In this document: positions 27,967 through 51,869 of the stretch, piece by piece
Layout of the letters: each line of letters begins with the position of its first letter
Numbering within the stretch: the stretch's first letter is position 1
DNA from: Rhodospirillaceae bacterium
Lineage (GTDB): Bacteria; Pseudomonadota; Alphaproteobacteria; Rhodospirillales; Rhodospirillaceae
Direction of reading: 5' to 3'
Assembly (NCBI GenBank): GCA_029245025.1
Contig: JAQWQC010000006.1
Coordinates: forward strand, 62,001-126,000
Length of the DNA stretch: 64,000 nt
Made by a program: the position numbers and the translations under genes
The notes under the pieces: generated by a model
Databases searched by the model: none
What the model was told of the DNA's origin: nothing
The model's input: the letters and a program-made list of their open reading frames with translations, nothing else

Positions 27967-29565
27967 TCAGCGCTCCTTGAAGCCCAGTGCACCGGGATTC
28001 ACAGTGCCCTCCGGGTCGAGCAAGTTCTTAATGCCACCCATGACCTTCGCCGTCTCCGGTAAGAGAGAGTCGAAATACGGGTAGGTCTTGCCGATTTGGT
28101 TTGAGGCTGCACCGTGCTTGGTGAAAATGGCCACCACCTTTTCTCTCATTTCAGCAACCAACGCCTCAGCCTCCGGATTCTTCTCCGGTTCTTTAAGCGT
28201 TTTAAGGTGGCTCGGCTCCGGTGTGCGTTTGTGCACCGGGTACCATTCATCAAACCAATGGAAGACGGGCTCATAGGAAAAGAAGTTCTGGCCAATGGCG
28301 ATCATCAAGCGCGTCATGAACACGCCACAGGCGTCCATCTTTTCTTGATAGGAGTCGAGCAGCGCTTCGGTCTCTTGCATGAGAGCAATAGCCCCTGAAT
28401 GACCGAGTTTGGCGTTAAGGGCCGCCCACCTATCACCGTCGGGCCCAAGAATACCGTTGAGCGGTTTAAAGGGATTAGCCCGCACGGCTTTAGGAATCGA
28501 ATTGGGAATCTCTTCACCGCCAAACTTAGCCGTGGCGGCGCGAATGGTTTCTAAATCTTTGTCGGTCGCTTCTCGACAATTGCCCGACACCACACAGTGC
28601 ATGGAGAACGCGCCTTCTTTCATAAAGTCGCGGCCGGCCACCACCAGCTTGGCGCCCTCGACCAGCCCCTTGAGCCAGCCGGACTGACCCTTCACGACAG
28701 CGCCAAGGGTTTTGATGTCCTCAACAATATCGGCGGCAGCCATGTTCTTTTTTGTTGAGCCGGGATCAAACACATAGGCTTCTTCGGCAGCGCCCGTGCG
28801 CGCTACCTCCGACAATGCTTTGGCCGTCGATTCCATATCGGGAAAACAGAACGACCCAAAATCCGTAATGGCGGGCGGGCGAATCATTCTAAACGTCGCC
28901 TGCACTTTAAAACCGAGGGATCCGGCGTCGTGGACGAACAAGCCAGTCAGGTCCGGCCCGTAGGTCCGGTAGAACGGTTTGTCGACATTCTTAAAACCGG
29001 GCTGGCCGGTCTTCAGCAACGTCCCGTCGGCCAACACCACTTCCATACATTGGACGATTTCAGCCGAAGTCCCGTAGCGCCCGGTGCCCATGAACAACGC
29101 CCCGTTGGACAAACCACCGCCAATTGTTGCCACCGAACCGGAGAAGGTACCAAAGAACGGCAACCGAAGGCCGCGCGGTTTCAGCTCTTCGTAAATCTGT
29201 TGCCACGTCACACCGGCTTGAACAGTGATGTAGAGATCTTCTTCATTGACCTCGATAATCTTGTTCATCGCGCTCATATCTAGCGTCACGGTATCCTCTC
29301 GTATGGGACGATAGCCGCCGGTGTAAGACATGCCGCCACCTCGGGGGACAACCGCATACCCCTCTTTGGTCGCCGCCGCGACAGCTTGAGCAAGTTTGGT
29401 TTTATCCGTGGGTTTAATCGCAACCGTGGGTGTTGACCCAACGGAGTAGACATCCGTCGCGTAAAACGCGCGTTCGGCTTCATCTGTGATGACCTGATCA
29501 GCACCGAGAATCTCGGTTAGCGTTTCTGCCAGTCGGTCATTCTTTGCAGAGGGGTCAACATTCAT
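27967..29565 (-). CDS. FAD-binding oxidoreductase, VAO type, paralogue 2
   Basis: The 532-residue paralogue of the enzyme at 18220 has VAIKPTDKTKLAQAV, PRGGGMSYTGGY (74-85), the GTFSGSVATIGGGLSNGA segment, and the ending LLDPEGTVNPGALGF. It belongs to the p-cresol methylhydroxylase/vanillyl-alcohol oxidase group by motif order. GGGAG lies 7 bp before the ATG. The YCII gene is 33 bp upstream on the same strand, and GcdH is upstream of that, suggesting one transcript gcdH-YCII-oxidase. Confidence 0.88.
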   Translation of the reverse strand: MNVDPSAKNDRLAETLTEILGADQVITDEAERAFYATDVYSVGSTPTVAIKPTDKTKLAQAVAAATKEGYAVVPRGGGMSYTGGYRPIREDTVTLDMSAMNKIIEVNEEDLYITVQAGVTWQQIYEELKPRGLRLPFFGTFSGSVATIGGGLSNGALFMGTGRYGTSAEIVQCMEVVLADGTLLKTGQPGFKNVDKPFYRTYGPDLTGLFVHDAGSLGFKVQATFRMIRPPAITDFGSFCFPDMESTAKALSEVARTGAAEEAYVFDPGSTKKNMAAADIVEDIKTLGAVVKGQSGWLKGLVEGAKLVVAGRDFMKEGAFSMHCVVSGNCREATDKDLETIRAATAKFGGEEIPNSIPKAVRANPFKPLNGILGPDGDRWAALNAKLGHSGAIALMQETEALLDSYQEKMDACGVFMTRLMIAIGQNFFSYEPVFHWFDEWYPVHKRTPEPSHLKTLKEPEKNPEAEALVAEMREKVVAIFTKHGAASNQIGKTYPYFDSLLPETAKVMGGIKNLLDPEGTVNPGALGFKER

Positions 29566-29964: not shown

Positions 29965-31188
29965 CTAAAAGAAGGCCTGCAATCCGGTTTGCGCGCGCCC
30001 AAGTATAAGAGCATGCACGTCATGGGTGCCTTCATAGGTATTCACGGTTTCCAAATTCATGGAATGACGCATGACATGAAACTCATCGACAATGCCATTG
30101 CCCCCATGCATGTCTCGCGCCATCCGGGCAATGTCCAGCGCCTTGCCGGCGTTATTGCGTTTGATCAGTGAAATATCTTCAGGAGCGCACGTCCCCGCAT
30201 CAACCTTACGGCCAACGTGAAGCGCTGCCGTCAGACCGAGTGTGATCTCGGTTTGCATGTCAGCGAGTTTCTTTTGAATCAGCTGATTCTGCGCCAAAGG
30301 TTTGCCAAACTGTTTGCGGTCCAAGGTGTATTGCCGCGCTGCATGCCAACACGCTTCTGCGGCGCCCATGGTGCCCCAGGCAATACCGAACCGTGCTTTG
30401 TTGAGACAGCCGAACGGACCCTTTAGTCCCTGGACGTTGGGCATCAGCGCGTCGTCGCCAACCTCGACATCTTCCATGACAACCTGCCCTGTGATAGACG
30501 CCCGCAAGCTGAGTTTGCCTTCAATCTTCGGTGCTGACAGGCCTTTCATCCCCTTCTCTAGAATGAAGCCTCGGATAACGTCATCCTCGGTTTTCGCCCA
30601 TACGACAAACACATCGGCCACCGGAGAATTTGAAATCCACGTCTTGGTGCCAGACAGAACGTAACCGCTGTCAGTTTTCTTAGCCCGGGTGGTCATACTG
30701 CCTGGATCAGACCCGGAGTCAGGCTCGGTGAGACCGAAGCAGCCAATCAGATCCCCTATGATCAACCCTGGCAGATACTTTTGGCGTTGCTCTTCGGTGC
30801 CATAAGCCGAGATGGGATAGATGACGAGAGACGACTGAACGCTGATCATTGAGCGATAGCCTGAGTCGACCTTCTCTAGCTCCCGCGCAATCAGCCCATA
30901 CGCCACATGACCGAGCGCGGAACCGCCGTAGGCTTCCGGTGCGGTCGCTCCAAGCAAGCCCTGGGCGCCCATTTCCGGGTACAGGTCGGGGTTGAAGGTT
31001 TCGCCACGATAAGCCTCAGTGATCCGGGGCAACAACTTGTCCTGGGCATAAGCCCGCGCGCTGTCGCGCACCATGCGCTCCTCTTCTGTGAATTGCTCTT
31101 CGAGGAGAAGCGGGTCTTCCCAGACAAACTTTCCCCATTTGGTAGCGTAGGAGACGGGTTGCGTCTCCGCTGACGCTTCTGCGGCCAT
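29965..31188 (-). CDS. gcdH: Glutaryl-CoA dehydrogenase
   Basis: The 407-residue acyl-CoA dehydrogenase oxidises and decarboxylates glutaryl-CoA to crotonyl-CoA, a step in lysine, tryptophan and aromatic catabolism. Diagnostic segments are [27 protein letters not shown], and [17 protein letters not shown], whose Glu386 is the catalytic base of GcdH. The N-terminal extension of about 35 residues before [10 protein letters not shown] is a little long but seen in the family. AAGGGA precedes the ATG. It likely heads a transcript with YCII and the VAO-type oxidase. Confidence 0.92.
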
Positions 31189-31820: not shown

Positions 31821-33062
31821 CTAGCTCTGTTTAAGCGCCCCAAACATGTACATGCCGCCGGATTTCTTAGGATTCGGCTTTTCCGCACCTTCGCGCATCT
31901 TAGCTTCATGGGCGTGCCGACTGAATGAGCCGCACCAGTCTGGATAGGTTGGGTCGTGGCGATTGACCGGTTGTGATGTCTCAAAGGTATCTGCGCGATC
32001 AAAGCCCGCGGACACCATTTCCTCGATCACATCCATGGTGTGCAGCTTGGCCCAGAAGGGTTCAGCGTTGTACCAACAATCCCAATCGCGAACGAACTTC
32101 TCGAATGGCGTGGTGTCAGGATCAAAATTGGGCTGCTCCATGTGCAGCATCAACCCACCGGGCTTAAGTAAGGTGTGGGATTGCTTGAGGATGGTATGCA
32201 TCGCCTTCGTCGATGTCTCATGAAAGAACATCGCCGATAGAACCAAGTCGACACTACCCGGCTCGATCGCAACAGATTCGACGTCAGCTTGCTGAAAGAT
32301 GATGTTTTCAATCCCCATCTCCTTGGCGCGGGCATGACCATACCTCAGCATCGGCGCGGCAATATCCACGGCCCAGACCTCGGCATCTGGATAGGCCTCG
32401 GCCAACGGAATGGTGTTGAACCCGGCTCCGGCACCAAAATCAACGATACGCTTCGGGGCAAAATCTGGGTGATTGTCTTTCAGCCACTCGGCCATGGTGC
32501 GTCCGACCAGGTCGCTTTTCGGACCCGTACCGCCAGCAACAGTGACAAAGTGGCCGGACTCGTAATTGGCGGGCGCTGAGACATCATCCGGAACAACCTC
32601 GGTGTAATAACTGCCGGGCATGACGTGATTGTCTGCCGCAGAAATATAGCGCGGCACTTCAACGGACGAATCCAACCGCAACCGGTTGCTACCCGCGTTC
32701 AATGTCTTGGCCCGCTCAACCAGACCGTCGATCTGGCGATAGACAAAAGACCGACCAACCTGCTGGCGCGCTTCTTGGGTATTCCGGCGCAATGCGGACC
32801 AGGCCTGAAACACGGGATCTGGTTTCATGGCGTCGCGCACCTCAACGGAAGACTCTGGTGCGCGGCCATGTTCTTTCTCGAACGCTGGCTTCACCTTGAC
32901 TTCAAACGCCGCCGAGACACCAGGAAACAACACAGCCCCAACATGAACATTCATATTGGCGAGAAAATTCATCCGCGCCGCATCGTCGTGACTGGGAACA
33001 GGCAATAATGAATGCCGGTTCAAACGGTCATAGGGCGGTGGCAAAGGGACGAAACTACTCAT
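31821..33062 (-). CDS. SAM-dependent methyltransferase with novel helical N-domain, paralogue 3
   Basis: The 413-residue protein is the most divergent of three paralogues (12250 and 17035). The helical N-domain is kept (PVPSHDDAARMNFLANM, HGRAPESSVEVRDAM). The His motif reads ADNHVMPGSYY and has lost its Cys. SAM motif I is RIVDFGAGAGFNT. The late signature reads DWDCWYNAEPFW. It is transcribed away from the hydratase-lyase operon at 33227 across 164 bp. The substrate is unknown. Confidence 0.8.
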   Translation of the reverse strand: MSSFVPLPPPYDRLNRHSLLPVPSHDDAARMNFLANMNVHVGAVLFPGVSAAFEVKVKPAFEKEHGRAPESSVEVRDAMKPDPVFQAWSALRRNTQEARQQVGRSFVYRQIDGLVERAKTLNAGSNRLRLDSSVEVPRYISAADNHVMPGSYYTEVVPDDVSAPANYESGHFVTVAGGTGPKSDLVGRTMAEWLKDNHPDFAPKRIVDFGAGAGFNTIPLAEAYPDAEVWAVDIAAPMLRYGHARAKEMGIENIIFQQADVESVAIEPGSVDLVLSAMFFHETSTKAMHTILKQSHTLLKPGGLMLHMEQPNFDPDTTPFEKFVRDWDCWYNAEPFWAKLHTMDVIEEMVSAGFDRADTFETSQPVNRHDPTYPDWCGSFSRHAHEAKMREGAEKPNPKKSGGMYMFGALKQS

Positions 33063-33226: not shown

Positions 33227-34498
33227 ATGGGCGAGACACTGATACAGAAAATCATGGCGCGGGCATCGAGCAAGGAGTCCGTAAGCCCTGGAGAAATCGT
33301 CACCTGCGCCGTTGATCTGGCAATGATTCTGGATTCTGGCGGACCCCGTAAGATCTGGCCACGCTTAGAGCAGCTTGGGGTCGGTGTTTACGACAACGAA
33401 AAGGTCGTGGTGGTCGCCGATCATTTTGTGCCCGCCGCCGACCCGCAAAGTGCGGCCATTTTGAAATTGACCCGCGACTTCGTGAAAAAGTTCGACATCA
33501 AACATTTTTACGACATGGAAGGCATTTGCCACGTCCTAATGGCCGAGAACGGCCACCTGCAGCCGGGCATGTTTTGTTGCGGCGGCGACAGCCACTCAAC
33601 AATGGGCGGCGCCTTCGGGTGCTACATGGCAGGCTTTGGCGCAATCGAGATGAGCGGTGTCGTCGTAACCGGCAACATTTGGTCGGTGGTTCCCGAGACG
33701 ATCAAAGTCGACTGGTCGGGAACATTCGGCGACGGCGTGGCAGCAAAAGACATCATGCTGTTCCTCGCGCGTGAATTGGGCATGGAGAACGCCTTTAAGG
33801 TTGTCGAGTATGGAGGACCGACCATTCGCGAGATGTCGATGATGGAACGCATGGTGCTGACTAACATGGCGGCTGAACTGGGCGCCGAAACAGGTTTGAT
33901 TGCCCCGGATGAGATCACCCTAGAGGCTATCCGAGCCGGAGGGACAGAACCTTCAGAGGATGCACTGGACTGGCGCAGCGATGACGACGCGACTTTCTGT
34001 GCTGAACATTCTTTCGATGCTGACACACTTGCGCCACAGGTGGCCGCGCCGCATAAGCCATCTAACTCCGCACCCGCAGAAGACTACGAGAAAGATAAAA
34101 TTCATGTGGATCAGGCCTACATTGGCGCCTGCGTCGGCGCCAAGCTGACAGACCTGCATATGGTCGCGTCGGTGCTTAAAGGGAAGCAAGTTAAGTCGGG
34201 CACGCGCCTTATGGTTGCACCGTCCTCCAAAAAAATTATGACGGAGGCTGCGGCAGACGGAACACTGGCAACCATCACCGAAGCCGGTGGCATGATCTTG
34301 CCGTCGGGCTGCGGAGCCTGTGCAGGTTTGGGGGCTGGCATCATCGCCGACGGCGAAGTGTGCATTTCGTCGACCAACCGTAATTTCCAAGGCCGCATGG
34401 GATCAAATGAGTCACTCGTTTACCTTGGGTCGCCCTATACCGTGGCGGCAGCGGCAGTCGCTGGACATATTGTTGACCCTCGGGAGCTACTGTCATGA
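33227..34498 (+). CDS. Aconitase-family hydratase large subunit (LeuC/HacA/DmdA-like)
   Basis: The 423-residue iron-sulfur hydro-lyase subunit has cluster ligands Cys302 (GACVGA), Cys362 and Cys365 (SGCGAC), and substrate motif GGDSHSTMGGAFGCY. Its length fits the split homoaconitase/isopropylmalate type. No leuB or leuA is nearby; instead a small subunit and an isocitrate-lyase-family enzyme follow with overlapping ends. That order matches the dimethylmaleate hydratase plus dimethylmalate lyase pair known from anaerobic nicotinate breakdown, so hydration of a substituted maleate is my best guess. Citraconate or isopropylmalate chemistry cannot be excluded. Confidence 0.85.
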   Translation: MGETLIQKIMARASSKESVSPGEIVTCAVDLAMILDSGGPRKIWPRLEQLGVGVYDNEKVVVVADHFVPAADPQSAAILKLTRDFVKKFDIKHFYDMEGICHVLMAENGHLQPGMFCCGGDSHSTMGGAFGCYMAGFGAIEMSGVVVTGNIWSVVPETIKVDWSGTFGDGVAAKDIMLFLARELGMENAFKVVEYGGPTIREMSMMERMVLTNMAAELGAETGLIAPDEITLEAIRAGGTEPSEDALDWRSDDDATFCAEHSFDADTLAPQVAAPHKPSNSAPAEDYEKDKIHVDQAYIGACVGAKLTDLHMVASVLKGKQVKSGTRLMVAPSSKKIMTEAAADGTLATITEAGGMILPSGCGACAGLGAGIIADGEVCISSTNRNFQGRMGSNESLVYLGSPYTVAAAAVAGHIVDPRELLS

Positions 34499-35016
34499 GT
34501 GCGGTCACGGGCAAGGCGTGGGTCTTTGGTGATGAGATCAACTCAGATGTCATGGCACCAGGGATTTACTTCAAGGAATCCGTCGAGGTGATGGCCAGCC
34601 ATTGCCTCGAAGCAGTCGACCCGGACTTTGCGTCAAATGTGCAACCGGGAGACATTGTCGTTGCCGGGCGCGCATTCGGCGTCGGCTCCGCGCGTGAACA
34701 GGCGGCGTTGTCATTTGCCCATATGAAAGTGGGCGCAATTCTGGCCAAGTCCTATGCGCGTATTTTTTACCGCAATATGCTGAACTTCGGTGTACCGGCT
34801 TTGGTTTTTCCAGAAGCAGACGAGATCAGCGCCAAAGACGAAGTGACTGTTGACGCCATAGCGGGCACAGTCGAAAACAAAACGACAGGCAAAAGCTATT
34901 CCGTCTCGCCGATCCCCGAACATCTCATGGAGATGATCTCAATGGGCGGATTGATGCCTTACCTCAAAAAGAAAATCGACGCCGGGGAACTCAAAACAGG
35001 AGCCATGCCAAAATGA
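34495..35016 (+). CDS. Aconitase-family hydratase small subunit (LeuD/DmdB-like)
   Basis: The 173-residue swivelling domain partner of the 33227 product carries the substrate-gripping motif GRAFGVGSAREQAA with its Ser-Arg pair, and SYARIFYRNMLNFGVPAL downstream. The ATG overlaps the large-subunit stop (ATGA), and its own stop overlaps the ATG of the lyase, so all three are translationally coupled. It would form the catalytic heteromer with the large subunit. A selectivity loop that separates LeuD from related enzymes cannot be judged by eye. Confidence 0.88.
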   Translation: MSAVTGKAWVFGDEINSDVMAPGIYFKESVEVMASHCLEAVDPDFASNVQPGDIVVAGRAFGVGSAREQAALSFAHMKVGAILAKSYARIFYRNMLNFGVPALVFPEADEISAKDEVTVDAIAGTVENKTTGKSYSVSPIPEHLMEMISMGGLMPYLKKKIDAGELKTGAMPK

Positions 35017-35915
35017 CAGCCACTGGAAGTCATACAAAACGCCTGCGAGAAATCCTCGCCGCGCCAAAGACGGCAATCGCGCCCGGAATGTACGACGGCT
35101 TGACTGGACTGCTTGTCGAGCAAGCAGGGTTTGAGTGCGCCTACATTGGGGGCGCCAGCATTGCCTACTCTCGTTTAGGACGATCCGACATTGGACTCAC
35201 CACATGCACCGAGGTTGCTGACACGGTGTCTAAGATTCGCGATCGTATTGAAATTCCGTTCGTTGTCGACGCAGATACGGGGTTCGGCAACGCGCTTAAC
35301 ACGCAACGGACGGTGCGCATGTTTGAGCGCGCAGGAGCCTCGGGCATTCAGCTCGAAGATCAAACGATGCCAAAGCGATGTGGTCATCTCGATGGCAAGA
35401 CCTTGGTCTCGACAGACGAAATGACGGGCAAGATCAAAGCCGCCTTAGATGCGCGACTGGACGACAACACGGTGATCGTTGGACGCACCGATGCGATTGC
35501 CGTTGAAGGGTTCGATGCGGCTCTCGACCGGGCAGAAGCCTACATGGAGGCCGGAGCCCACATGTTGTTCATCGAGGCGCCGCGCTCTCTGGACGAATTG
35601 AAAACCATCGGCGACCGCTTTGCTGGTCGCGTGCCTTTGCTGGCCAACATGGTCGAGGGTGGCAAAACGCCCCTCTCCTCAGCCGAAGAATTGGGCAGCC
35701 TTGGATTCAAGTTTATTATTTTCCCCGGTGCGATGATTCGCATGGTTGCCAAGGCCGGACAGGACTACCTAACCGCCCTTAAACAAGACGGCTCGACCAA
35801 ACAAGTTAGGGACCGGATGTTCGATTTTAATGGCCTCAACGACCTTCTCGGCACGACCGATCTGCTTGAAAGCGGCAAGCGCTACGACCCGGACGTGAAA
35901 AAAGCCGCAGAATAG
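35013..35915 (+). CDS. Isocitrate lyase/PEP mutase family enzyme (dimethylmalate or methylisocitrate lyase-like)
   Basis: The 300-residue TIM-barrel lyase cleaves C-C bonds next to a carboxylate, releasing pyruvate or glyoxylate from malate or citrate derivatives. The catalytic signature K-R-C-G-H is in MPKRCGHLDGK (Cys123). Mg-binding and substrate segments are PFVVDADTGFG and GIQLEDQ. It is coupled to the hydratase subunits by a 4-nt overlap. Together they would hydrate a substituted maleate and cleave it, as in dimethylmalate lyase yielding propionate plus pyruvate. Methylisocitrate lyase is the main alternative, but prpC/prpD are absent here. Confidence 0.87.
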   Translation: MTATGSHTKRLREILAAPKTAIAPGMYDGLTGLLVEQAGFECAYIGGASIAYSRLGRSDIGLTTCTEVADTVSKIRDRIEIPFVVDADTGFGNALNTQRTVRMFERAGASGIQLEDQTMPKRCGHLDGKTLVSTDEMTGKIKAALDARLDDNTVIVGRTDAIAVEGFDAALDRAEAYMEAGAHMLFIEAPRSLDELKTIGDRFAGRVPLLANMVEGGKTPLSSAEELGSLGFKFIIFPGAMIRMVAKAGQDYLTALKQDGSTKQVRDRMFDFNGLNDLLGTTDLLESGKRYDPDVKKAAE

Positions 35916-36074
35916 CGGCGTCACAACGCGAACGAGAGACTGCGAGCACCCTCGCCACACCACCTGTATGGTTTGATTCTCTCGGACTCAACGCTATTCT
36001 CTGTTCCAAGCACACCGCGTCTGCGGTGAAAACAAGGCAACGCACGCCATATAAGATATAGGGGACGCATCACC

Positions 36075-36737
36075 ATGGAGATGTCAGACAAGACAGCTCG
36101 TCAGCTCTACGAAGACGTTAAAGCCAATCCAGCGCGAGCCAAATTCGGATTCGGCAATAAAGCCGCTCTGGTCAATATCGACATCCAAAAGGCCTACACC
36201 CGGACGGACCTATTTAAGACCGCCTACGAGACCGACCCCAACCAATTGCAATACGTCAATGAAGTCGCAGAATTGATGCGCGCCTGTGGCTGGCCAGTGA
36301 TCTGGACCTATGTGGCTTACGTCGAATCAGGTGAAGACTGTGGTGTTTGGGGCACGCGAACAGACACCCCCGACAGCTTGCAAAACATCAAGTATGGCTC
36401 TGAGCGATCCGAGTTTGATGATCGTCTCGACATCAAAGACAGCGATATCGTCATGGACAAGAAAATGCCGTCGCCGTTCTTTGAAACAAACCTTCAGTCG
36501 CTTCTCGTGTACCACCAAGTTGATACAATCTTGGTCACCGGAGGGTCGACATCCGGTTGCGTGCGCGCGATGGGTGTTGACAGTTTGTCACGTGGTTATC
36601 GCACAACCATCATCGAAGAATGCGTTGCCGACAAACATGAGAGCTATCACTTCGCCAATTTGACAGATCTCGCATTGAAGTATTGCGATGTTGAGTCCGT
36701 TGATACCGTTAAAGCCTGGCTGAAGGGTCAAAGCTAA
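36075..36737 (+). CDS. Isochorismatase-family amidohydrolase (N-carbamoylsarcosine/maleamate amidase-like)
   Basis: The 220-residue cysteine hydrolase has the triad Asp36 (VNIDIQKAY), Lys129 or Lys130 (DKKMPSPFF) and Cys162 (STSGCVRAMGVD). The run EECVADKHESYHFANL is typical of the carbamoylsarcosine/maleamate branch rather than true isochorismatase. It would hydrolyse an amide or ureido group. Its setting between a putative maleate hydratase operon and PuuE-like hydrolases suggests half-amide hydrolysis. AGGGGA lies before the ATG at 36075; an ATG two codons on is possible. Confidence 0.85.
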   Translation: MEMSDKTARQLYEDVKANPARAKFGFGNKAALVNIDIQKAYTRTDLFKTAYETDPNQLQYVNEVAELMRACGWPVIWTYVAYVESGEDCGVWGTRTDTPDSLQNIKYGSERSEFDDRLDIKDSDIVMDKKMPSPFFETNLQSLLVYHQVDTILVTGGSTSGCVRAMGVDSLSRGYRTTIIEECVADKHESYHFANLTDLALKYCDVESVDTVKAWLKGQS

Positions 36738-36785
36738 GCGGTACGCAATTGTTTTCGTTTATCCGATAAATATAGGGAGGGGTGC

Positions 36786-37703
36786 GTGAAGCCCGATCTC
36801 GAACTCTACGACTATTGGCCCTACGAAGGCCGTCCGAAAATCACCTGGCCCAACGGGGCGAAGGTCGCGTTTTGGGTCGCGCCAAATATTGAGTTCTACG
36901 AACTCGACCCGCCGGTTAATCCTTTGCGCAAAGCTTGGCCGCGCCCCAGCCCTGACGTGCTGATGGCCGCGAGCCGGGACTACGGCAATCGTGCCGGGCA
37001 TCGCCGGGTGATGGATGTGATGGACAAGTATAATGTCCGCGGCTCTGTCTCCTTAAACATCGGACTGATTGACCATCACCCCGAGTTGATCGAAGAAGCC
37101 AAAGAGCGTGACTGGGAGTTTTTCTCGCACGGCATTTACAACACGCGCTATTCCTACGAGATGGACGAAACGCAAGAGCGCGCCATCCTGGAAGACAGTC
37201 TTGAGTCCGTGATGAATGCCACCGGGCAAAAGCTCGCGGGATACCTCGCTCCCGCCCTCACCCATACAGAACGCACCATCGACTTGCTGGCTGAGTACGG
37301 CTTTCTCTATAGCTGCGACTTGTTTCAAGACGACATGCCGCAACCGATCAACGTGAAGAGTGGGCGTTTAATTTCCATGCCCTACTCGTTGGAGATCAAC
37401 GATATCATTGTCTACAACGCCTATCTCGGTACACCACGCCGCTATGGGCAGATGATCAAAGACCAATTTGATCAACTGCTCCTTGAAGGCGAAGACTGCG
37501 GCACAGTGATGTGCATACCGTTGCACGCCTATGCGGTCGGCCATCCTCATCGCATACGGGGCTTTGAAGAGGCACTGGAATACATCACCGGGCACGCCAA
37601 AGAAGATGTCTGGGTCGCCACCGGCCGCGAGATCGCTGAGTACTATTACGAAAATTACTACGATGCGTGCGCCGCAGACATTGCCGCACGGAAGGGGGGC
37701 TGA
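36786..37703 (+). CDS. PuuE-like polysaccharide-deacetylase-fold hydrolase, copy 1
   Basis: The 305-residue NodB-fold metal hydrolase belongs to the cytoplasmic allantoinase/cyclic imidase branch. It has no signal peptide. Opening WPNGAKVAFWVAPNIEFYE, then RDYGNRAGHRRVMDVMDKY and FSHGIYNTRYSY carry the conserved His region; the end reads DVWVATGREIAEYYY. Branch members open cyclic amides, not sugars. The start is GTG at 36786, with GGGAGGGG upstream. It is followed 3 bp later by a paralogue. Activity on an imide ring is inferred from relatives and context. Confidence 0.8.
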   Translation: MKPDLELYDYWPYEGRPKITWPNGAKVAFWVAPNIEFYELDPPVNPLRKAWPRPSPDVLMAASRDYGNRAGHRRVMDVMDKYNVRGSVSLNIGLIDHHPELIEEAKERDWEFFSHGIYNTRYSYEMDETQERAILEDSLESVMNATGQKLAGYLAPALTHTERTIDLLAEYGFLYSCDLFQDDMPQPINVKSGRLISMPYSLEINDIIVYNAYLGTPRRYGQMIKDQFDQLLLEGEDCGTVMCIPLHAYAVGHPHRIRGFEEALEYITGHAKEDVWVATGREIAEYYYENYYDACAADIAARKGG

Positions 37704-37706
37704 GCC

Positions 37707-38630
37707 ATGACCCTTGATAAATCCTACTTGGAATACCCCAATCGCCGTCAAGGCATGGATCACGACCTGTATGACTTCTCCATGCTGGATCGACGCAAAC
37801 CTGTCGCCTGGCCTAACGGCGCCAAGATGGCAATTTGGGTCAGCTACTCTTTGGAGTATTTCCCCCTCGATCAACCGTCGAAACCGTTCAAGGTGCCGGG
37901 CGGCATGGTCACGCCCTACCCTGACCTGCGTCACTACACGACACGGGATTACGGAAACCGGGTTGGTATTCAGCGCATCTGGAAAGTATTGGACAAACAC
38001 GGGATCAAAGCGTCAGCGGCCGTAAACTCAAAAGTGGCTGAGCGGTATCCGTATTTGATCGATAAGATCAATGCGCGAGGTGATGAAATTCTTGGCCACG
38101 GCGTTGATATGGGCAAAGTCCATCACGGCGGCATGGACGATGCGGAAGAGCAAGCGCTGATCAAAGAGAGTTTAGATGTACTGCGCAAAACGTCTGGCCA
38201 GGCGGTCACGGGCTGGTGGTCTCCGGGTAAATCGGAAAGCTGGAACACCGGTAAGCACCTGACCGCTAACGGTGTTGACTACAGCTGCGACTGGGGCAAC
38301 GACGACATGCCCTACCAGATGAACGAAGCCGCCGGAAATATATGGGCGATGCCTCATGGTGACGAAGTGTGGGATCGCACCATCATCATGGATAAAAAAC
38401 ACAACGAAGAAGAGTTCTGCGAACAAGTCGAAGATGCGTTTACCGTGCTGAATGGTGAAACTGATCAATACGGCGGGCGTGTGCTGTCGATTATCCTCAC
38501 GCCTTACATCATGGGTCAGCATTACCGGATCAAATATTTGGATCAAATATTAGGTTGGATCATGGCGCAGGACGGCGTGTGGTCCGCTAACGGTGCTGAA
38601 ATCCTAAGCGCATTCAAAGAACAGGCATAA
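37707..38630 (+). CDS. PuuE-like polysaccharide-deacetylase-fold hydrolase, copy 2
   Basis: The 307-residue paralogue of the preceding gene has WPNGAKMAIWVSYSLEYFPL, RDYGNRVGIQRIWKVLDKHG, and ILGHGVDMGKVHHGG in the His region. The middle WWSPGKSESWNT and SCDWGNDDMPY align with the first copy's APALTHTER and SCDLFQDDMPQ. It starts 3 bp after the first copy and ends 4 bp before the VOC array, so it is in the same transcript. The pair could be two specificities or a heteromer. Confidence 0.8.
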   Translation: MTLDKSYLEYPNRRQGMDHDLYDFSMLDRRKPVAWPNGAKMAIWVSYSLEYFPLDQPSKPFKVPGGMVTPYPDLRHYTTRDYGNRVGIQRIWKVLDKHGIKASAAVNSKVAERYPYLIDKINARGDEILGHGVDMGKVHHGGMDDAEEQALIKESLDVLRKTSGQAVTGWWSPGKSESWNTGKHLTANGVDYSCDWGNDDMPYQMNEAAGNIWAMPHGDEVWDRTIIMDKKHNEEEFCEQVEDAFTVLNGETDQYGGRVLSIILTPYIMGQHYRIKYLDQILGWIMAQDGVWSANGAEILSAFKEQA

Positions 38631-38634
38631 GACT

Positions 38635-39636
38635 ATGGCAGACAGCACTTCTGGCGTTTCTCGGAGGTCCGCACTCGGCACTGCAGGAGCCGCTGCCGCT
38701 GTCGTGACATCAACCGCTTCATGCTCTGAGGACTCGCCTGTGACCACACCAGTACCAAAACTAAAACGCATCAAGATGGCAACGATTGCCGTGCCAAACC
38801 TCGACGCGATTGAGCCGCTATACAAGGATTGGCTTGGTTACGTGGTTGTAGAACGGGGTAACGTTGAGGAGGCTTTGGCCGTATCTTGGGGGGCGCCGAA
38901 ATCAGCGGGCCGTCGTTACATTATGATGCAGCCCGAGAGCGGCACGGATGTATATATTCGTGCTGTCGAGATTGACCCCGTGCCTGACTACAAGGCGATG
39001 ACCACCTGGGGCTGGAATGCCATCGAACTCATTGTCGATGATCCGGATGCTCTCTACGACAAACTAAAAGACTCACCGTTTACGCTCCTCGGCAAGCCGG
39101 CAGGCCTCAAGAACTATCCATCTATTCGTGCCACGCAGTTTCAAGGCCCTGCTGAAGACGTGTTGTACCTGACAGCGGAAACAGGTGACCGGACCAACTC
39201 TCTACTGCCGCGACCGGGCGCTTTTGTTGGTCGCATCTTTATTATGGTTGTCGCGGGGCCTGATATTAATGCCTTGCAGGATTGGTACGCTGACACCTTC
39301 GACATGGCCCGTGGCCCAATCAACAATTCGCCGATCGACCTCATCAATAAAGCTCAAGGCCTGCCATCCGGTAGTGAACGGCCGTTGACCATCGTCGGGA
39401 TGTCCGACCACGGTAATATTCTTGAGTTAGACGGCTATGGTGCGCACACCGGACCACGCCCACGCGGCGAAGGAGAGCTTCCGCCGGGCATCGCCATGAC
39501 CAGTGTGACCGTACCCAATCTTGATGATCTCGATATCGAGACGATCACGGATCCGATTGCTGCTTACGGAAGCCGGTCGGCTGTGGCAATTGGTCCCGCT
39601 GGCGAATTGCTCGAATTGATAGAAGAGCCCACTTAA
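38635..39636 (+). CDS. Exported two-domain VOC protein 1 (Tat, possible lipoprotein)
   Basis: The 333-residue protein has a twin-arginine signal, SRRSALGTAG, and Cys30 after STAS, which may be lipid-modified although the lipobox is weak. The first module begins LKRIKMATIAVPNLDAIEPL, holds SWGAPKSAGRR and VEIDPVPDYKAMTTWGWNA; the second begins GRIFIMVVAGPDINALQDWY and ends GPAGELLELIEE. The first-strand metal His is absent. It heads five homologues (to 44086). A binding role or a metal-independent reaction is more likely than glyoxalase activity. Confidence 0.8.
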   Translation: MADSTSGVSRRSALGTAGAAAAVVTSTASCSEDSPVTTPVPKLKRIKMATIAVPNLDAIEPLYKDWLGYVVVERGNVEEALAVSWGAPKSAGRRYIMMQPESGTDVYIRAVEIDPVPDYKAMTTWGWNAIELIVDDPDALYDKLKDSPFTLLGKPAGLKNYPSIRATQFQGPAEDVLYLTAETGDRTNSLLPRPGAFVGRIFIMVVAGPDINALQDWYADTFDMARGPINNSPIDLINKAQGLPSGSERPLTIVGMSDHGNILELDGYGAHTGPRPRGEGELPPGIAMTSVTVPNLDDLDIETITDPIAAYGSRSAVAIGPAGELLELIEEPT

Positions 39637-39651
39637 CTGATAGGACGTTCC

Positions 39652-40566
39652 ATGACAGATGCGCCCACCCCGTTACTCAAACGTCTAAAAATTAACACGG
39701 TTGCAGCACCGGACATCGGGCTAGTTGAAAGTTGGTATACGGAGTGGTTGGGCTACAGTGTCTGCGAACGCAGCACCATCAGTGCCGACCTTGCTACATC
39801 TTGGGGCACACCAGCGATGGCAGGCCGTCCTTCCATTTTGCTCCAACCAGAAAGCGGTGATGCGGTTTTCCTTCGCGTATGTGAAATCGACCCCGTGCCC
39901 GGCTACAAGCCGATGAATACACTGGGTTGGAACGCGTTCGAAATCATCATCGATGATGTTTACGAGCTCAACGAAATGCTACTCAAAAGTCCGTTTAAAA
40001 TTATCGGCGAGCCCGCCAGCCTAGGCGGTGACTTAGACTTCATTCACGCCATGCAAGTTGAGGGTCCGGCTGGAGATGTTTTGTACCTGACATGTGACAG
40101 AGTTCGCGCGCCCGACACGCTGCTGCCGCCACCGGGTGCATTTGTTGGCCGCCCCTTTATCGTCATCTTGGCGGGCAATGGGGTTGAAGCAACTCAGAAG
40201 TACTACAGCGAGACATTTGCGATGAAACGCGAGGACGACATGCAAACGTCCATTGGTGTTGTCGCTAACGCGCAAGGTCTGCCCGACGACCACATCTTCG
40301 ATATGGGTTTCATGGCCCTGGCAGAAACCGGCAACTTTATAGAATACGATGGATATGCTGACAGTTTTGGGGCACGTCCCTGCACTGACGGGCAGTTACC
40401 ACCCGGGTGCTCGACGGTCTCTATCTCCGTCGACAGCATCGATGCTCTAGACCTGGACTATGTGGGTGACGCTGTCAGTGATCCCTCGATGGCCTATGGA
40501 GGCGGGCGCTGTAGAACAGCACGAGGTCCTGTCGGCGAACTCATCGAGTTGGTCGAAGACCCATAA
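39652..40566 (+). CDS. Two-domain VOC protein 2 (no signal peptide)
   Basis: The 304-residue homologue of its neighbours lacks an export signal, so it should be cytoplasmic unless it has lost its leader. Shared parts are LLKRLKINTVAAPDIGLVES, SWGTPAMAGRPSILL, CEIDPVPGYKPMNTLGWNA and the ending RGPVGELIELVEDP. It starts 15 bp after protein 1 and its stop overlaps the next ATG by 1 nt (TAATG). This is the only member of the five without a leader. Confidence 0.8.
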   Translation: MTDAPTPLLKRLKINTVAAPDIGLVESWYTEWLGYSVCERSTISADLATSWGTPAMAGRPSILLQPESGDAVFLRVCEIDPVPGYKPMNTLGWNAFEIIIDDVYELNEMLLKSPFKIIGEPASLGGDLDFIHAMQVEGPAGDVLYLTCDRVRAPDTLLPPPGAFVGRPFIVILAGNGVEATQKYYSETFAMKREDDMQTSIGVVANAQGLPDDHIFDMGFMALAETGNFIEYDGYADSFGARPCTDGQLPPGCSTVSISVDSIDALDLDYVGDAVSDPSMAYGGGRCRTARGPVGELIELVEDP

Positions 40567-41561
40567 TGTCAAAGGACTCCGATCTCTCAAGACGGAGCGT
40601 CATTACCGGCGTAGGAGCGGCTGCCGCTGTGACAGCTTCTTCTGCACAAGCGCAAAAAGGCGAACGCAAGAATCTTATAATTGGCCATGCCATCGCCACT
40701 ATAGGTGTGCCCAACGTCTCTGATGCTCAAATCATGTATGAAAAAGGCATCGGAATCTACGAGGTCAACAAAGGCACGGTCAGTGAAGGCGTTGCAACTT
40801 CCTGGGGAGCACCGGCGATGGCCGGCCGGCCGTGGGTTATGATGCGGTGTGAGAGCGGAGATGAGACCTTCCGCATTCGTATAGTCGAAGTTGACCCCGT
40901 ACCCGGTTATCGCGCCATGGCGACCTGGGGCCTTAACGCCATCGAAATGATTTCGGAAGACATCTACACCGTCAATGAACGGGTTTTATCCGCCGGCTTT
41001 GATGTCATCGGGGAGCCTCGCCCCTTGAGTGAAGCCTATGCGAGCGTCCATGCCATGCAGGTCAAAGGCCCTGGTGAAGAGCTATTTTATTATGCCAGCG
41101 ATATGACCGGTGAAAACGAATTTGATCTCATCACACCAAAGTCGTTGGTTGATCGTATTTTTAATGCCGTGATCGGCACGCCGAATATTCGGGCCAGCCG
41201 TGCCTTCTATGAGCAGACCCTAGGCATGAGCCTGGGGAAAATTCAAGAATTCAAGGTGCGCATGGTTGCTGATGCACTTGGATATTCCAGAGATCAAGCT
41301 ATCGAAATGGGCGGCGCACGCGGACGTCGGCCCGGCAGTTCACTGGAGTTTGATGCCTACCCTGTCGGCCTGTCTGGCCCACGCCCACGTGCTGCCGGGC
41401 AATTGCCGCCGGGTGTTTCTATGATCAGTATGACCACGGACGACTTTGACGCCATTGATGTATCCTACGCAGCACCTCCTGCAGTATTGTATGGCGAGGG
41501 TCGTGCCGCGACTTTCGTTGGACCGTCTGGTGAATGGGTCGAGATTATTGAGGACACGTAA
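40566..41561 (+). CDS. Exported two-domain VOC protein 3 (Tat)
   Basis: The 331-residue protein has signal SRRSVITGVGAAAAV with a cleavage site near AQAQ (about residue 24). Its body reads GHAIATIGVPNVSDAQIMYE, SWGAPAMAGRPWVMMR, VEVDPVPGYRAMATWGLNA, and ends GPSGEWVEIIED. It is the most divergent member in the second module. The ATG overlaps the previous stop. It is followed by a periplasmic RidA homologue, whose start lies 24 bp away. Confidence 0.8.
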   Translation: MSKDSDLSRRSVITGVGAAAAVTASSAQAQKGERKNLIIGHAIATIGVPNVSDAQIMYEKGIGIYEVNKGTVSEGVATSWGAPAMAGRPWVMMRCESGDETFRIRIVEVDPVPGYRAMATWGLNAIEMISEDIYTVNERVLSAGFDVIGEPRPLSEAYASVHAMQVKGPGEELFYYASDMTGENEFDLITPKSLVDRIFNAVIGTPNIRASRAFYEQTLGMSLGKIQEFKVRMVADALGYSRDQAIEMGGARGRRPGSSLEFDAYPVGLSGPRPRAAGQLPPGVSMISMTTDDFDAIDVSYAAPPAVLYGEGRAATFVGPSGEWVEIIEDT

Positions 41562-41585
41562 TGCAAAATGAAAGGGAGACGCATA

Positions 41586-42050
41586 ATGATCAAAATACTG
41601 ATACCTCTATTTGCCATCGTTGCCATGGCGCCCGTTGCAATGGCTGAAGTTGAGATCAAACGTTGGAATCCAGAAGGCCTGGGCCAGCCTATCGGATATT
41701 CCCAAGTCGTCACGATAGAAGGCACCGGTAAAATGGTGTTGCTCGGCGGCAAAGCTGGCTTGACAGCTGATGACTACATCCCGGAAACCCTAGCCGAACA
41801 ATCAAAGCTTACCTGGAAGAACGTCGACCTGGCTCTGAAAGCCGCCGGTGCAAAGCGCGAAGATGTGGTTGAGATCGAGATCTTTATTGTTGATCTGGCA
41901 AATATTGACCCCAACCCCGCATATCAAGACGTCCGCGATTTCTTTCCCGCAGGACACAAACCTGTCTCCATGGTGATTGGGGTCAGCGCCTTGGCTATTC
42001 CCGAGCTCAAAATGGAAGTCAACGTTCGCGCCATAGTGGCCAACGACTAG
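41586..42050 (+). CDS. Periplasmic RidA-family (YjgF/YER057c) protein
   Basis: The 154-residue protein has a Sec signal peptide in residues 1-20 ending AMA. Mature RidA fold segments are GYSQVVTIEGTGKMVLLGG, WKNVDLALKAAGAKREDVVE and MEVNVRAIV. Cytoplasmic RidA hydrolyses reactive enamines using an Arg in an A-R-S motif; here that place reads HKPVSMVIGV, without the Arg, so deaminase activity is doubtful. GGGAG precedes the ATG at 41586. Export and position within the VOC array suggest a shared small-molecule role. Confidence 0.8.
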   Translation: MIKILIPLFAIVAMAPVAMAEVEIKRWNPEGLGQPIGYSQVVTIEGTGKMVLLGGKAGLTADDYIPETLAEQSKLTWKNVDLALKAAGAKREDVVEIEIFIVDLANIDPNPAYQDVRDFFPAGHKPVSMVIGVSALAIPELKMEVNVRAIVAND

Positions 42051-42104
42051 GGTCACCGGATAAGGTTATCGCATCACGCAATTGATTCACATGAGGACGC
42101 TTTC

Positions 42105-43079
42105 ATGACCCTCTCTCGCAAGCAATTCCTTTCCCTCATCGGTGCTGCCGCTCTAGTTCAGCCTAGCATGGTCCGCGCACAAGCACCCGCAACCAACATG
42201 AGTAGAATTAAGTATGCGACCCTTGGCGCACCCGACCTGGGTGCTGTTGAACAGGCCTATACAAAATGGTTGGGACACACCATTGTTGAACGCTCCACGG
42301 TCAGCCATAGAATGGCGAACTCTTGGGGCACACCGAAGATGGCCGGCCGACCCTTTGTGTTGATGCGCCCCATGACCGGTGAAGACGTGATGATTCGTGC
42401 CGTCGAAACGGACGCGCTTCCCGGATACAAAGCGATGACAACGTTAGGCTGGAATGCCTTTGAGATAATCGTCAATGACCCGGATGATTTGCACAGTCGG
42501 TTGATGGACGGATCTCCGTTCGAGCATATTGGTGGACCGGCAAACTTAGGCGGGGGCTCCACAATTCGTGCCGCTCAATACATCGGCCCTGCTGGCGAGG
42601 TCCTGTACTTCAATAGCGAGACCGGCGATCGGGAAAAATCAAACCTGCCATTGCCAGGTGAAGATGTGGGCCGCACCAATATTGTCATTCTCGCCAGCAA
42701 AGACCTGGATGAAACCATGCCGATCTACCGCGCTGCGTTTGGATTAGGGCAAGGATTTGTTATGCCAACACCAAACAAATTGGTGGCTGAGGCGCAAGAG
42801 CTAGAAGACGGGGCAATGTTAAGGCTCGGATTTATCACGTTGCGCGAGCGGGGCAATGCGATCCACTTTGACGAATACACGGACGGCAGCGAACCTCGCC
42901 CAACCACTGACGACATGCTGCCTCAGGCCTGCGCCATGGTCTCCTTTAATGTCGACAATTTAGATGCCGTTGATGCTGATTTTGTCGCGGAACCAATTAC
43001 TGAATATAGCGGCATGCGTTCAGCTGTTTTCAAAGGACCAGCCGGTGAACTGGTCGAACTCATAGAAGCGGACCGCTAG
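42105..43079 (+). CDS. Exported two-domain VOC protein 4 (Tat-like)
   Basis: The 324-residue protein has a Tat-like leader SRKQFLSLIGAAALV (Arg-Lys in place of Arg-Arg) and a cleavage site after VRAQ (about residue 26). Body: SRIKYATLGAPDLGAVEQAY, SWGTPKMAGRPFVLM, ALPGYKAMTTLGWNA and GPAGELVELIE. It is most like protein 5, which follows 2 bp later. It shares the loss of the first-strand metal ligand with the rest of the array. Confidence 0.8.
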   Translation: MTLSRKQFLSLIGAAALVQPSMVRAQAPATNMSRIKYATLGAPDLGAVEQAYTKWLGHTIVERSTVSHRMANSWGTPKMAGRPFVLMRPMTGEDVMIRAVETDALPGYKAMTTLGWNAFEIIVNDPDDLHSRLMDGSPFEHIGGPANLGGGSTIRAAQYIGPAGEVLYFNSETGDREKSNLPLPGEDVGRTNIVILASKDLDETMPIYRAAFGLGQGFVMPTPNKLVAEAQELEDGAMLRLGFITLRERGNAIHFDEYTDGSEPRPTTDDMLPQACAMVSFNVDNLDAVDADFVAEPITEYSGMRSAVFKGPAGELVELIEADR

Positions 43080-43081
43080 GT

Positions 43082-44086
43082 ATGACAGACGCAAGACGCA
43101 TTGATTTGAGCCGTAAGGCTTTTCTTAGCCTCACCGGGGCAGCTGCCGTAACGACTGTTCTGCCCCATTCCCTACTAGCCCAGGAGTCCAAACCTTTGCT
43201 GAGCCGAATCAAGATGGCGACCGTCGGTGCGCCAGACCTCGATGCCATTGAACGCTGGTACACCACATGGCTGCATTACACCGTGATGGAACGATCTACT
43301 GTTAGCGCAGAGATAGCAGCGTCTTGGGGAACGCCAAACACTGCTGGCCGTCCCTTCATCGTCATGCAGTCAGCCGCAAAGGATGACGTCTATATCCGCG
43401 CAGTCGAGATTGACCCCGTTCCCGGATACAAAGCCATGACAACTTGGGGCTGGAACGCCATTGAAATTATCGTCGATGACGTTGACGCTCTGCATGAGGG
43501 TTTGAAGACATCGGAGTTTGCCCATCTTGCCGGTCCAGCAAATCTATTCGGGGGCACATCTTCTATCCGGGCCGTTCAATACGCCGGCCCAGCGCAAGAA
43601 GTCCTCTATTTGACTTGCGAGACCGGCGACCGTTCGAAATCGACCTTGCCCCTACCTCGCGGCTCGGTCGATCGGCCGTTCATTATGGTCCTCGCCGGCC
43701 CTGATTTGAGTGCCATGGAATCGTTTTACAAAGAGGCCTTCAACATGGGCGACGACGGGTTCCGATTCACCTCAACGGGTGGACTTATTTCAAAAATGCA
43801 GGGCCGTCCTGATGATCAGGTCTATAATTTAGGCCTCATTCGACTCAATGAGCCGGGCAACAATATTGAGCTGGATGAGTACCCCGATGACACGGGTCCG
43901 CGACCTAGCGCCGATGGACAACTTCCGCCTGGCGTTGCCATGACTACCTTTAATGTCGAAGACCTGGACGCAACGGGTATAGACTTTATCTCAGCTCCGA
44001 TACTCGAATATGGCGGCAAGCGGTCGGCAACCTTCGTTGGGCCAGCTGGAGAGCTGACTGAATTAATCGAAGATAAGCGATCTTAG
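43082..44086 (+). CDS. Exported two-domain VOC protein 5 (Tat-like)
   Basis: The 334-residue protein has leader SRKAFLSLTGAAAVTTV and cleavage near LLAQ (about residue 35). Body: SRIKMATVGAPDLDAIERWY, SWGTPNTAGRPFIVMQ, VEIDPVPGYKAMTTWGWNA, second module VDRPFIMVLAGPDLSAMES, end GPAGELTELIED. It is the last member of the array and lies 3 bp before a crotonase gene. It strongly resembles proteins 1 and 4 over the first 180 residues. Confidence 0.8.
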   Translation: MTDARRIDLSRKAFLSLTGAAAVTTVLPHSLLAQESKPLLSRIKMATVGAPDLDAIERWYTTWLHYTVMERSTVSAEIAASWGTPNTAGRPFIVMQSAAKDDVYIRAVEIDPVPGYKAMTTWGWNAIEIIVDDVDALHEGLKTSEFAHLAGPANLFGGTSSIRAVQYAGPAQEVLYLTCETGDRSKSTLPLPRGSVDRPFIMVLAGPDLSAMESFYKEAFNMGDDGFRFTSTGGLISKMQGRPDDQVYNLGLIRLNEPGNNIELDEYPDDTGPRPSADGQLPPGVAMTTFNVEDLDATGIDFISAPILEYGGKRSATFVGPAGELTELIEDKRS

Positions 44087-46703: not shown

Positions 46704-46907
46704 TTGCTGTCGAGACCGCTGAAGACGAACTCCGGGGGTAAAGGCACACCTATAACAGATGAAGAACCACCCAAGCATAGGGGCGAAGCGTTATCTCAGA
46801 ACGAGATCGACCGCGTTCTGGCTGGTGGAGATATCGCAGACGACTTATATGTCGTATTTCACCGATTCATTGCATGCTCAATTCATGCACCAAATTTCGA
46901 AAAGTGA
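46704..46907 (+). CDS. Small open frame upstream of the reductase, uncertain
   Basis: The 67-residue frame ends 9 bp before the ferredoxin reductase start. Its middle reads EALSQNEIDRVLAGGDIADD, resembling the short N-terminal SQ-x-E-I-D-x-L-L element of flagellar FliM. No flagellar gene is nearby and no strong ribosome site is seen. It may be a chance frame, a remnant or a real small protein. Confidence 0.3.
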   Translation: MLSRPLKTNSGGKGTPITDEEPPKHRGEALSQNEIDRVLAGGDIADDLYVVFHRFIACSIHAPNFEK

Positions 46908-51866: not shown

Positions 51867-51869
51867 CTC

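What the first reader, a model, noticed from the sequence alone, without database searches (positions are those of the whole stretch)
33227..38630. Candidate pathway for substituted cyclic imides or maleates
Six consecutive + strand genes encode a coupled two-subunit aconitase-type hydratase, an isocitrate-lyase-family lyase (KRCGH), a maleamate/carbamoylsarcosine-type amidohydrolase and two PuuE-like deacetylase-fold hydrolases. Known relatives: dimethylmaleate hydratase plus dimethylmalate lyase in anaerobic nicotinate breakdown, maleamate amidase, and cyclic imide hydrolases of the PuuE-like fold. Ordered as chemistry this gives imide ring opening, half-amide hydrolysis, hydration, and cleavage to pyruvate plus a short acid. 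Substituted maleimides, such as those made when tetrapyrroles oxidise, would be natural substrates. I know of no described operon of this content, but I cannot search.
Basis: partly seen in the sequence, partly recalled or inferred. Interest (0 to 1): 0.75.

Follow-up and report, generated by a model that had tools for sequence, protein, structure and literature searches.

The report
Predicted cyclic-imide breakdown operon
A six-gene bacterial operon looks like a complete route that opens a small nitrogen-containing ring (a cyclic imide), frees the ammonia and cuts the remaining acid into central metabolites; relatives carry the same set with an unrelated ring-opening enzyme swapped in, which supports the idea, but the real substrate is not proven.

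Summary
The run probably continues to 44875. A glutaryl-CoA dehydrogenase (GCDH) gene stands divergently upstream. The same order recurs in other families. In 385 class genomes, 28 of 29 with this hydratase (own genome excluded) also hold this lyase. The best new evidence is a gene swap. Of 30 hydratase genomes, 10 hold the PuuE-like protein (E <= 1e-70). Twelve others instead carry, after the lyase, HyuB-HyuA (cyclic-amide hydrolase family) plus another isochorismatase-family hydrolase. Eight show neither. The hydratase tree needs at least 3 switches. This fits ring opening, half-amide hydrolysis, hydration and C-C cleavage. Hydratase and lyase fall outside LeuC and PrpB. My preferred substrate is a tetrapyrrole-type imide with a propionate arm (hematinic acid), giving pyruvate and glutarate. 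It rests on the GCDH neighbour and a homoaconitase-like loop, both suggestive only; simple alkyl maleimides are about as likely. No activity has been shown.

The parts
33227..34498 (+). HYDL: large subunit of aconitase-type hydratase, homoaconitase-like subfamily
   Evidence: hacA_fam 433 bits, cut-off 385.7; tree apart from LeuC
34495..35016 (+). HYDS: small subunit (LeuD/DmdB family), recognition loop Y-F-K
   Evidence: (TIGR02087 159.6 bits, cut-off 108.95)
35013..35915 (+). LYASE: PEP-mutase/ICL-family C-C lyase, KRCGH at residues 121-125, ANMVEGGKTP at 211-220
36075..36737 (+). AMID: isochorismatase-family amidohydrolase, candidate triad D36, K129 or K130, C162
36786..37703 (+). PUUE1: PuuE-like CE4-fold hydrolase, likely catalytic partner (H115, H247 invariant)
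37707..38630 (+). PUUE2: second PuuE-like protein, usually beside PUUE1 (exceptions L048, L139, L149); no invariant His; likely partner subunit
29965..31188 (-). Glutaryl-CoA dehydrogenase, divergent neighbour
38635..44086 (+). Five VOC-type paralogues (38635, 39652, 40566, 42105, 43082), four with TAT-like leaders by eye, and RidA-like gene at 41568-42050; role unknown
   Evidence: model of the 43082 gene
44090..44875 (+). Enoyl-CoA hydratase, last gene of the run; could act on crotonyl-CoA
27967..29565 (-). FAD-linked oxidase (FADox); about 50% identical genes stand in three sphingomonad clusters
31821..33062 (-). Methyltransferase-fold gene between GCDH and HYDL in most relatives; absent in L044 and L046, so probably not essential

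Best explanation
The operon encodes catabolism of a small cyclic imide. PUUE1, probably with PUUE2, opens the ring to a half-amide. AMID hydrolyses the half-amide, releasing ammonia and leaving a substituted maleate. HYDL/HYDS adds water to give a substituted malate. LYASE cleaves this retro-aldol fashion into a 2-oxo acid (pyruvate, if the hydroxyl-bearing carbon carries methyl) and a carboxylate. In this lineage I propose that the carboxylate is glutarate, passed through the divergently encoded glutaryl-CoA dehydrogenase and the enoyl-CoA hydratase; the input would then be hematinic-acid imide, the propionate-bearing monopyrrole of haem, bilins and chlorophyll, whose diacid is methyl-homoaconitate. 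Shown here: gene content, conservation, module replacement, subfamily placement. Inferred: every reaction, the PUUE1-PUUE2 partnership, the substrate and the glutarate step. The confidence is for the general pathway; about 0.3 of it falls on the hematinic reading and the rest on simpler imides.
For: Same six-gene order in L116 (f33), L118 (f89), L126 and L127 (f40) and in an Acidimicrobiales-titled MAG, L049. In 385 class genomes the hydratase (E <= 1e-110) occurs in 30, the lyase (1e-85) in 46, PUUE1 (1e-70) in 33; excluding the own genome, hydratase x lyase 28 of 29 (3.4 expected), hydratase x PUUE1 9 of 29 (2.4 expected, p = 2e-4), lyase x PUUE1 17 of 45 (3.75 expected); Fisher tests, which ignore kinship. 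Of the 30 hydratase genomes 10 have PUUE1 and 12 have HyuB-HyuA-isochorismatase right after the lyase; at least 3 switches on the hydratase tree (36 rows), and one clade for the HyuAB rows rejected (p-AU 0.005; I had seen the tree first). HyuA's nearest NCBIfam model is caprolactamase alpha, a lactam opener by name (525 bits, under its cut-off of 1000). A fumarate-reductase/flavocytochrome-c-type flavoprotein, whose next models include tricarballylate dehydrogenase (all under cut-off), stands in 12 of 60 PUUE loci and 9 of 12 HyuAB loci and could make the double bond from a saturated analogue. Precedent for a CE4-fold imidase followed by an amidase: HxnM/HxnN (PMC9304392, passages). For glutarate: GCDH divergent from HYDL within 0.15-2.1 kb in 11 of 11 near relatives where both were found, beside it in family f40 (L126, L127) and in G430 of f116 (L180); it is the only GCDH of this genome. 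The HYDS loop aligns Y-F-K and ASHC with YLRT and ASHC of homoaconitase small subunit 2pkp, against YLVY in 3vba. Hematinic acid was found in leaves as a chlorophyll product, while maleimides were not detected there (PMC7318184, passages).
Against: No enzyme has been assayed. GCDH is common without the operon: 32 of 49 relatives that lack HYDL at the threshold have it, so adjacency may be incidental; two of three f116 genomes do not show it on the short contigs seen, and no GCDH stands beside the hydratase in L116, L118, L125 or any of the 12 HyuAB loci. Over its whole length HYDS scores higher with the isopropylmalate/citramalate isomerase subunit 3vba (131.6 bits) and 1v7l (117.9) than with homoaconitase 2pkp (109.6), and a lysine at the loop position also occurs in the genome's own LeuD (FLK). 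The lyase carries the EGG motif of petal death protein, which by recall acts on dialkylmalates without a third carboxylate. Eight of 30 hydratase genomes show no ring-opening module: four with ample flank (L162, L172, L174, L175), three at contig ends or breaks (L166, L169, L173), one not fetched (G166). HyuA's next models are acetophenone carboxylase subunits, so HyuAB could be something else. Half of the 60 PUUE loci have no LeuC-type hydratase nearby, and L139 and L149 have PUUE1 without PUUE2 in the stretch seen. The VOC, FADox and RidA genes are unexplained.
Confidence: 0.65

Rival explanations
1. Same general pathway, but the substrate is a simple alkyl maleimide (citraconimide, dimethyl- or ethylmethylmaleimide), cleaved to pyruvate plus acetate, propionate or butyrate; GCDH is only a neighbour. 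(Its share is part of the 0.65 given to the general pathway.)
For: Lyase motif F(I/V)EAP...ANMVEGG matches petal death protein, not PrpB; HYDS is nearest overall to an isopropylmalate/citramalate isomerase subunit; GCDH widespread without the operon.
Against: GCDH adjacency in three families; positively charged, homoaconitase-like loop in HYDS.
Confidence: 0.35
2. Hydantoin-type route: the PuuE-like pair (or HyuAB) opens a substituted hydantoin and AMID hydrolyses the N-carbamoyl product, as in creatinine breakdown; hydratase and lyase treat something else.
For: PuuE is an allantoinase; N-carbamoylsarcosine amidohydrolase is among the nearest solved relatives of AMID; HyuAB plus an isochorismatase-type hydrolase is also the creatinine logic (recalled).
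Against: No ammonia lyase or aminotransferase was recognised by eye in the clusters L116, L118, L126, L127 to turn an amino acid into a maleate; tight coupling with hydratase and lyase.
Confidence: 0.12
3. N-acyl route as in aerobic nicotinate breakdown: a ring-cleaving dioxygenase (perhaps a VOC protein) makes an N-formylmaleamate analogue, the CE4-fold pair removes the acyl group, AMID acts on the maleamate.
For: CE4 enzymes are N-deacylases (recalled); VOC and FAD oxidase genes accompany the cluster here and in sphingomonads.
Against: The compact clusters L116, L118, L126 and L127 show no relative of the window's VOC proteins; HyuAB replaces the pair and belongs to the hydantoinase/oxoprolinase family.
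Confidence: 0.1
4. Two unrelated modules (an amide-hydrolase trio and a hydratase-lyase pair) that only happen to be neighbours.
For: Each module also occurs without the other.
Against: Same joint order in several families, significant co-occurrence, and replacement by an analogous module.
Confidence: 0.06

Closest known systems
HxnM/HxnN of Aspergillus nidulans nicotinate breakdown (PMC9304392, passages)
   Same: cyclic imidase with PuuE/HpPgdA-like structure opens an imide, then an amidase frees ammonia
   Different: six-membered hydroxyglutarimide; one imidase gene; ends at hydroxyglutarate without hydratase or lyase
Maleimide hydrolase of Blastobacter sp. A17p-4 (EC 3.5.2.16, named in a passage of PMC1940265)
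   Same: imide to half-amide, followed by half-amide hydrolysis (second step recalled)
   Different: no hydratase-lyase end known to me; sequence not compared here
Dimethylmaleate hydratase DmdAB and dimethylmalate lyase Dml of anaerobic nicotinate fermentation (recalled)
   Same: two-subunit aconitase-type hydratase followed by an ICL/PEP-mutase-family lyase
   Different: no imide step; reference sequences not available, so orthology untested
Methanogen homoaconitase HacAB
   Same: HYDL over the hacA subfamily cut-off; HYDS loop Y-F-K/ASHC like YLRT/ASHC
   Different: below the HacA_Meth and HacB equivalog cut-offs; HYDS scores higher with isopropylmalate isomerase subunits; catabolic context
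Petal death protein (1zlp), 2-alkylmalate-type lyase (function recalled)
   Same: EAP and NMxEGGKTP motifs
   Different: PrpB-type structures score higher overall

Membership tests
PuuE allantoinase (TIGR03212) | score over the equivalog cut-off 424.6 | tested here: not met
   121.7 and 90.6 bits
CE4-fold cyclic imidase | PuuE/HpPgdA-like fold | tested here: met
   model pLDDT 85.9; TM 0.76 to PuuE 3cl6, 0.68 to 3qbu
CE4-fold cyclic imidase | hydrolysis of imides | not testable with these tools
   needs an assay
Isochorismatase-superfamily amidase | domain and Asp-Lys-Cys triad | tested here: met
   PF00857; D, K and C aligned with 4l07 and 26st; triad role recalled
3-isopropylmalate dehydratase (LeuC) | LeuC score and clade | tested here: not met
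   TIGR00170 215 of 560 bits; own tree clade 100/100
Homoaconitate hydratase-like large subunit (TIGR01343) | subfamily cut-off 385.7 | tested here: met
   433.1 bits
Methanogen homoaconitase (NF040615) | equivalog cut-off 550 | tested here: not met
   389.1 bits
Methylisocitrate lyase PrpB (TIGR02317) | equivalog cut-off 354.4 and PrpB clade | tested here: not met
   298.9 bits; E. coli PrpB outside the 46-row clade in a quick tree
Dimethylmaleate hydratase / dimethylmalate lyase | orthology to DmdAB and Dml | not tested
   no reference sequences; HYDS is over the LeuD/DmdB family cut-off
Glutaryl-CoA dehydrogenase | close similarity to solved GCDH | tested here: met
   4w9u 1e-194 (deposited as acyl-CoA dehydrogenase), GCDH 3gnc 4e-179, 1sir 6e-171; below the NF045552 cut-off 470 with 211 bits

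The most novel reading that the evidence does not exclude
The operon is a bacterial pathway for the monopyrrolic end products of tetrapyrroles: hematinic-acid imide is opened, deamidated, hydrated to methyl-homoisocitrate (the one-carbon homologue of 2-methylisocitrate) and cleaved to pyruvate and glutarate, returning pigment carbon and nitrogen to central metabolism. A parallel form in other lineages (HyuAB opener plus fumarate-reductase-type flavoprotein) would handle the saturated succinimides.
Probability: 0.3. Interest if true: 0.85.

Novelty: new variant of a known kind. Interest (0 to 1): 0.62.

Why it matters
How bacteria recover carbon and nitrogen from cyclic imides, and from the last fragments of haem and chlorophyll, is to my knowledge poorly known. 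A conserved gene set, in part plasmid-borne, that can be assayed step by step, with two interchangeable ring-opening modules, would make this directly testable and would give a function to genes now annotated as polysaccharide deacetylase, isochorismatase and 3-isopropylmalate dehydratase.

Tried and rejected
Dead ends. PDB sequence search with one VOC paralogue gave no hit; the model of another matches plant glyoxalase I and other VOC folds at TM about 0.6, which does not tell its reaction. Conserved columns of these VOC proteins show no invariant His, so a classical extradiol site is doubtful. A paper search for the strains JE1, TomTYG65 and JZ-6 showed nothing on these clusters in the 10 of 26 rows listed. 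Searches for imide, dimethylmaleate, maleimide-hydrolase and hematinic-acid degradation listed no paper that I recognised as describing such an operon (titles and abstract starts only, lists capped, open-licence library). Five papers were looked at by passages only: PMC9304392, PMC7318184, PMC7308503, PMC8184944 and PMC1940265. A succinate-glutarate CoA-transferase over cut-off was not found in the genome (best 300.6 of 750 bits; none of the 14 control genomes was over it either). Rejected: leucine or lysine biosynthesis, methylcitrate cycle, allantoin breakdown. In one search the printed GCDH count 16 of 60 contains one labelling artefact (L088), so 15.

The lyase tree was a quick search without bootstrap, with several long branches. 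In the count of switches L182 was scored as a PUUE row although its PUUE1 lies on another contig, and rows with neither module were left out.
Full report
What is there. The six ORFs at 33227-38630 are real, on one strand and tightly packed; the first three overlap by ATGA. Pfam and NCBIfam give an aconitase-type large and small subunit, a PEP-mutase/isocitrate-lyase-family lyase with KRCGH, an isochorismatase-family hydrolase and two PuuE-like proteins. The run continues through five VOC-type paralogues, a RidA-like gene and an enoyl-CoA hydratase to 44875. Upstream, divergent, stands a glutaryl-CoA dehydrogenase (1e-194 to 4w9u, 6e-171 to the GCDH 1sir), the only one in the genome (next best match 31% identity).

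Subfamilies. The hydratase passes the hacA subfamily cut-off (433 against 385.7) and the small subunit that of the LeuD/DmdB family, but neither reaches a biosynthetic equivalog cut-off. The lyase is below PrpB (298.9 against 354.4), and both PuuE-like proteins are far below allantoinase (121.7 and 90.6 against 424.6). In a tree of 60 rows the hydratases form one clade of 46 (100/100) apart from E. coli LeuC and the genome's own LeuC-type proteins. The cluster lyases form a clade of 46 rows apart from E. coli PrpB in a quick tree of 58 rows, and nearly all carry F(I/V)EA and N(M/I)VEGG, as in petal death protein. The AlphaFold model of PUUE1 matches PuuE allantoinase (TM 0.76) and HpPgdA (0.68). 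PUUE1 has invariant H115 and H247; PUUE2 has no invariant His in 58 rows, so I infer one heteromeric enzyme; L139 and L149, with PUUE1 but no PUUE2 in the stretch seen, speak against a strict pair.

Spread. PUUE1 at E <= 1e-70 is in 33 of 385 class genomes and 10 of 398 genomes drawn from the phylum, the own genome counted in both. Amidase and PUUE1 travel together (57 of 60 flanked loci). The six-gene order recurs in L116, L118, L126, L127 and L049. Related sets stand on plasmids: in Sphingomonas JE1 and Sphingobium TomTYG65 with LeuCD, an ICL-family lyase, a CoA transferase and an HMG-CoA-lyase-type gene; in Burkholderia plantarii with LeuCD-type and ICL-family genes; in Acidiphilium with CoA transferase and HMG-CoA lyase and no ICL-family gene in the stretch shown.

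The swap. In 385 class genomes the hydratase occurs in 30 and the lyase in 46; leaving out the own genome, 28 of 29 hydratase genomes hold the lyase. Of the 30, ten hold PUUE1. Twelve, none with PUUE1 at that threshold, carry HyuB-HyuA and an isochorismatase-family gene after the lyase (L161, L163, L164, L165, L167, L168, L170, L171, L176, L177, L178, L179), nine of them with a fumarate-reductase-type flavoprotein whose nearest models include tricarballylate dehydrogenase, under cut-off. Eight show neither: four with ample flank (L162, L172, L174, L175), three at contig ends or breaks (L166, L169, L173) and one not fetched (G166). On the hydratase tree at least three changes between the modules are needed among 36 rows, and one clade for the HyuAB rows is rejected (p-AU 0.005, tested after seeing the tree). 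L118 shows the PUUE trio in the very context (GntR regulator, ABC transporter, flavoprotein) where others have HyuAB. That unrelated openers plus an isochorismatase-type hydrolase replace each other beside the same hydratase and lyase is the best evidence for the proposed chemistry. Caveat: HyuA's next models are ketone-carboxylase subunits.

Substrate. Three hints point to an imide with a propionate arm. First, the GCDH: in 11 of 11 near relatives where HYDL and GCDH were both found, they lie divergently within 0.15-2.1 kb, and GCDH is adjacent in f40 (L126, L127) and in one of three f116 genomes (L180). Second, the HYDS loop resembles homoaconitase; this loop sets substrate preference in isopropylmalate isomerases (PMC7308503, passages). 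The lysine is shared by both module groups, with exceptions L049, L180 and L181. Third, the diacid of hematinic acid is methyl-homoaconitate (structure, own reasoning), and its hydration and cleavage would give pyruvate plus glutarate. Against this: GCDH is common anyway (32 of 49 relatives without HYDL), it is not beside the hydratase in L116, L118, L125 or the 12 HyuAB loci, HYDS as a whole is nearer to isopropylmalate/citramalate isomerase subunits than to homoaconitase, the genome's LeuD has a similar FLK loop, and the lyase motif suits dialkylmalates. Hence 0.3 for the hematinic reading within 0.65 for the general pathway.

Precedents. HxnM of Aspergillus opens an imide and HxnN frees the ammonia (PMC9304392, passages); maleimide hydrolase of Blastobacter is listed as EC 3.5.2.16 (PMC1940265, passage). 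Hematinic acid is reported from leaves as a chlorophyll product, maleimides not detected in that study (PMC7318184, passages). I found no paper listing that joins imide opening to a hydratase-lyase end.

Noticed in passing
window 38635-44086: Five VOC-type paralogues, four with TAT-like leaders by eye, no invariant His; distant relatives (33-36% identity) stand in sphingomonad imide clusters (L086, L087, L094, L095).
   Followed up: partly
L153 (own genome C6:101001-121000): Second possible cyclic-amide cluster: HyuA/HyuB, isochorismatase-type gene (36% to AMID), CaiB CoA transferase, HMG-CoA-lyase-type gene and four copies of the window's methyltransferase family.
   Followed up: partly
L151 (own genome C34:147001-167000): Unlinked LeuC/LeuD pair with CoA transferase and HMG-CoA-lyase-type gene, 52-67% identical to those in Sphingobium TomTYG65 or Acidiphilium.
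   Followed up: partly
L155 (own genome C7:68001-88000): PUUE2-like gene (30%) near a maleate-isomerase-like gene and an FAD monooxygenase (both by eye); perhaps an aromatic N-heterocycle route.
   Followed up: no
window 12250, 17026, 31821: A methyltransferase-fold family with a shared N-terminal part; three copies in the window by eye, more around other clusters of this genome.
   Followed up: no
window 50730-52769: Vanillate-demethylase-type Rieske oxygenase beside a rhodanese; ferredoxin-reductase-type gene at 46874.
   Followed up: no
window 23133-24884: Carbon-nitrogen hydrolase (nitrilase family, PF00795); nitrilase-like genes also follow the trio in the Terrarubrum locus (annotated) and Henriciella loci (by eye).
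   Followed up: no
L047, L048: MAGs titled Candidatus Marinimicrobia carry this cluster; the L048 hydratase nests with Rhodospirillaceae (100/87), suggesting mislabelled or misbinned contigs.
   Followed up: no
L089: The plasmid cluster of Burkholderia plantarii also holds electron-transfer flavoprotein genes and a porin.
   Followed up: no
L169, L174 (genomes G216, G314, family f51): Hydratase-lyase loci without HyuAB or PUUE have a weak isochorismatase-family match (30-33%) some 2-4 kb away on the other strand; possibly a third amidase arrangement.
   Followed up: no
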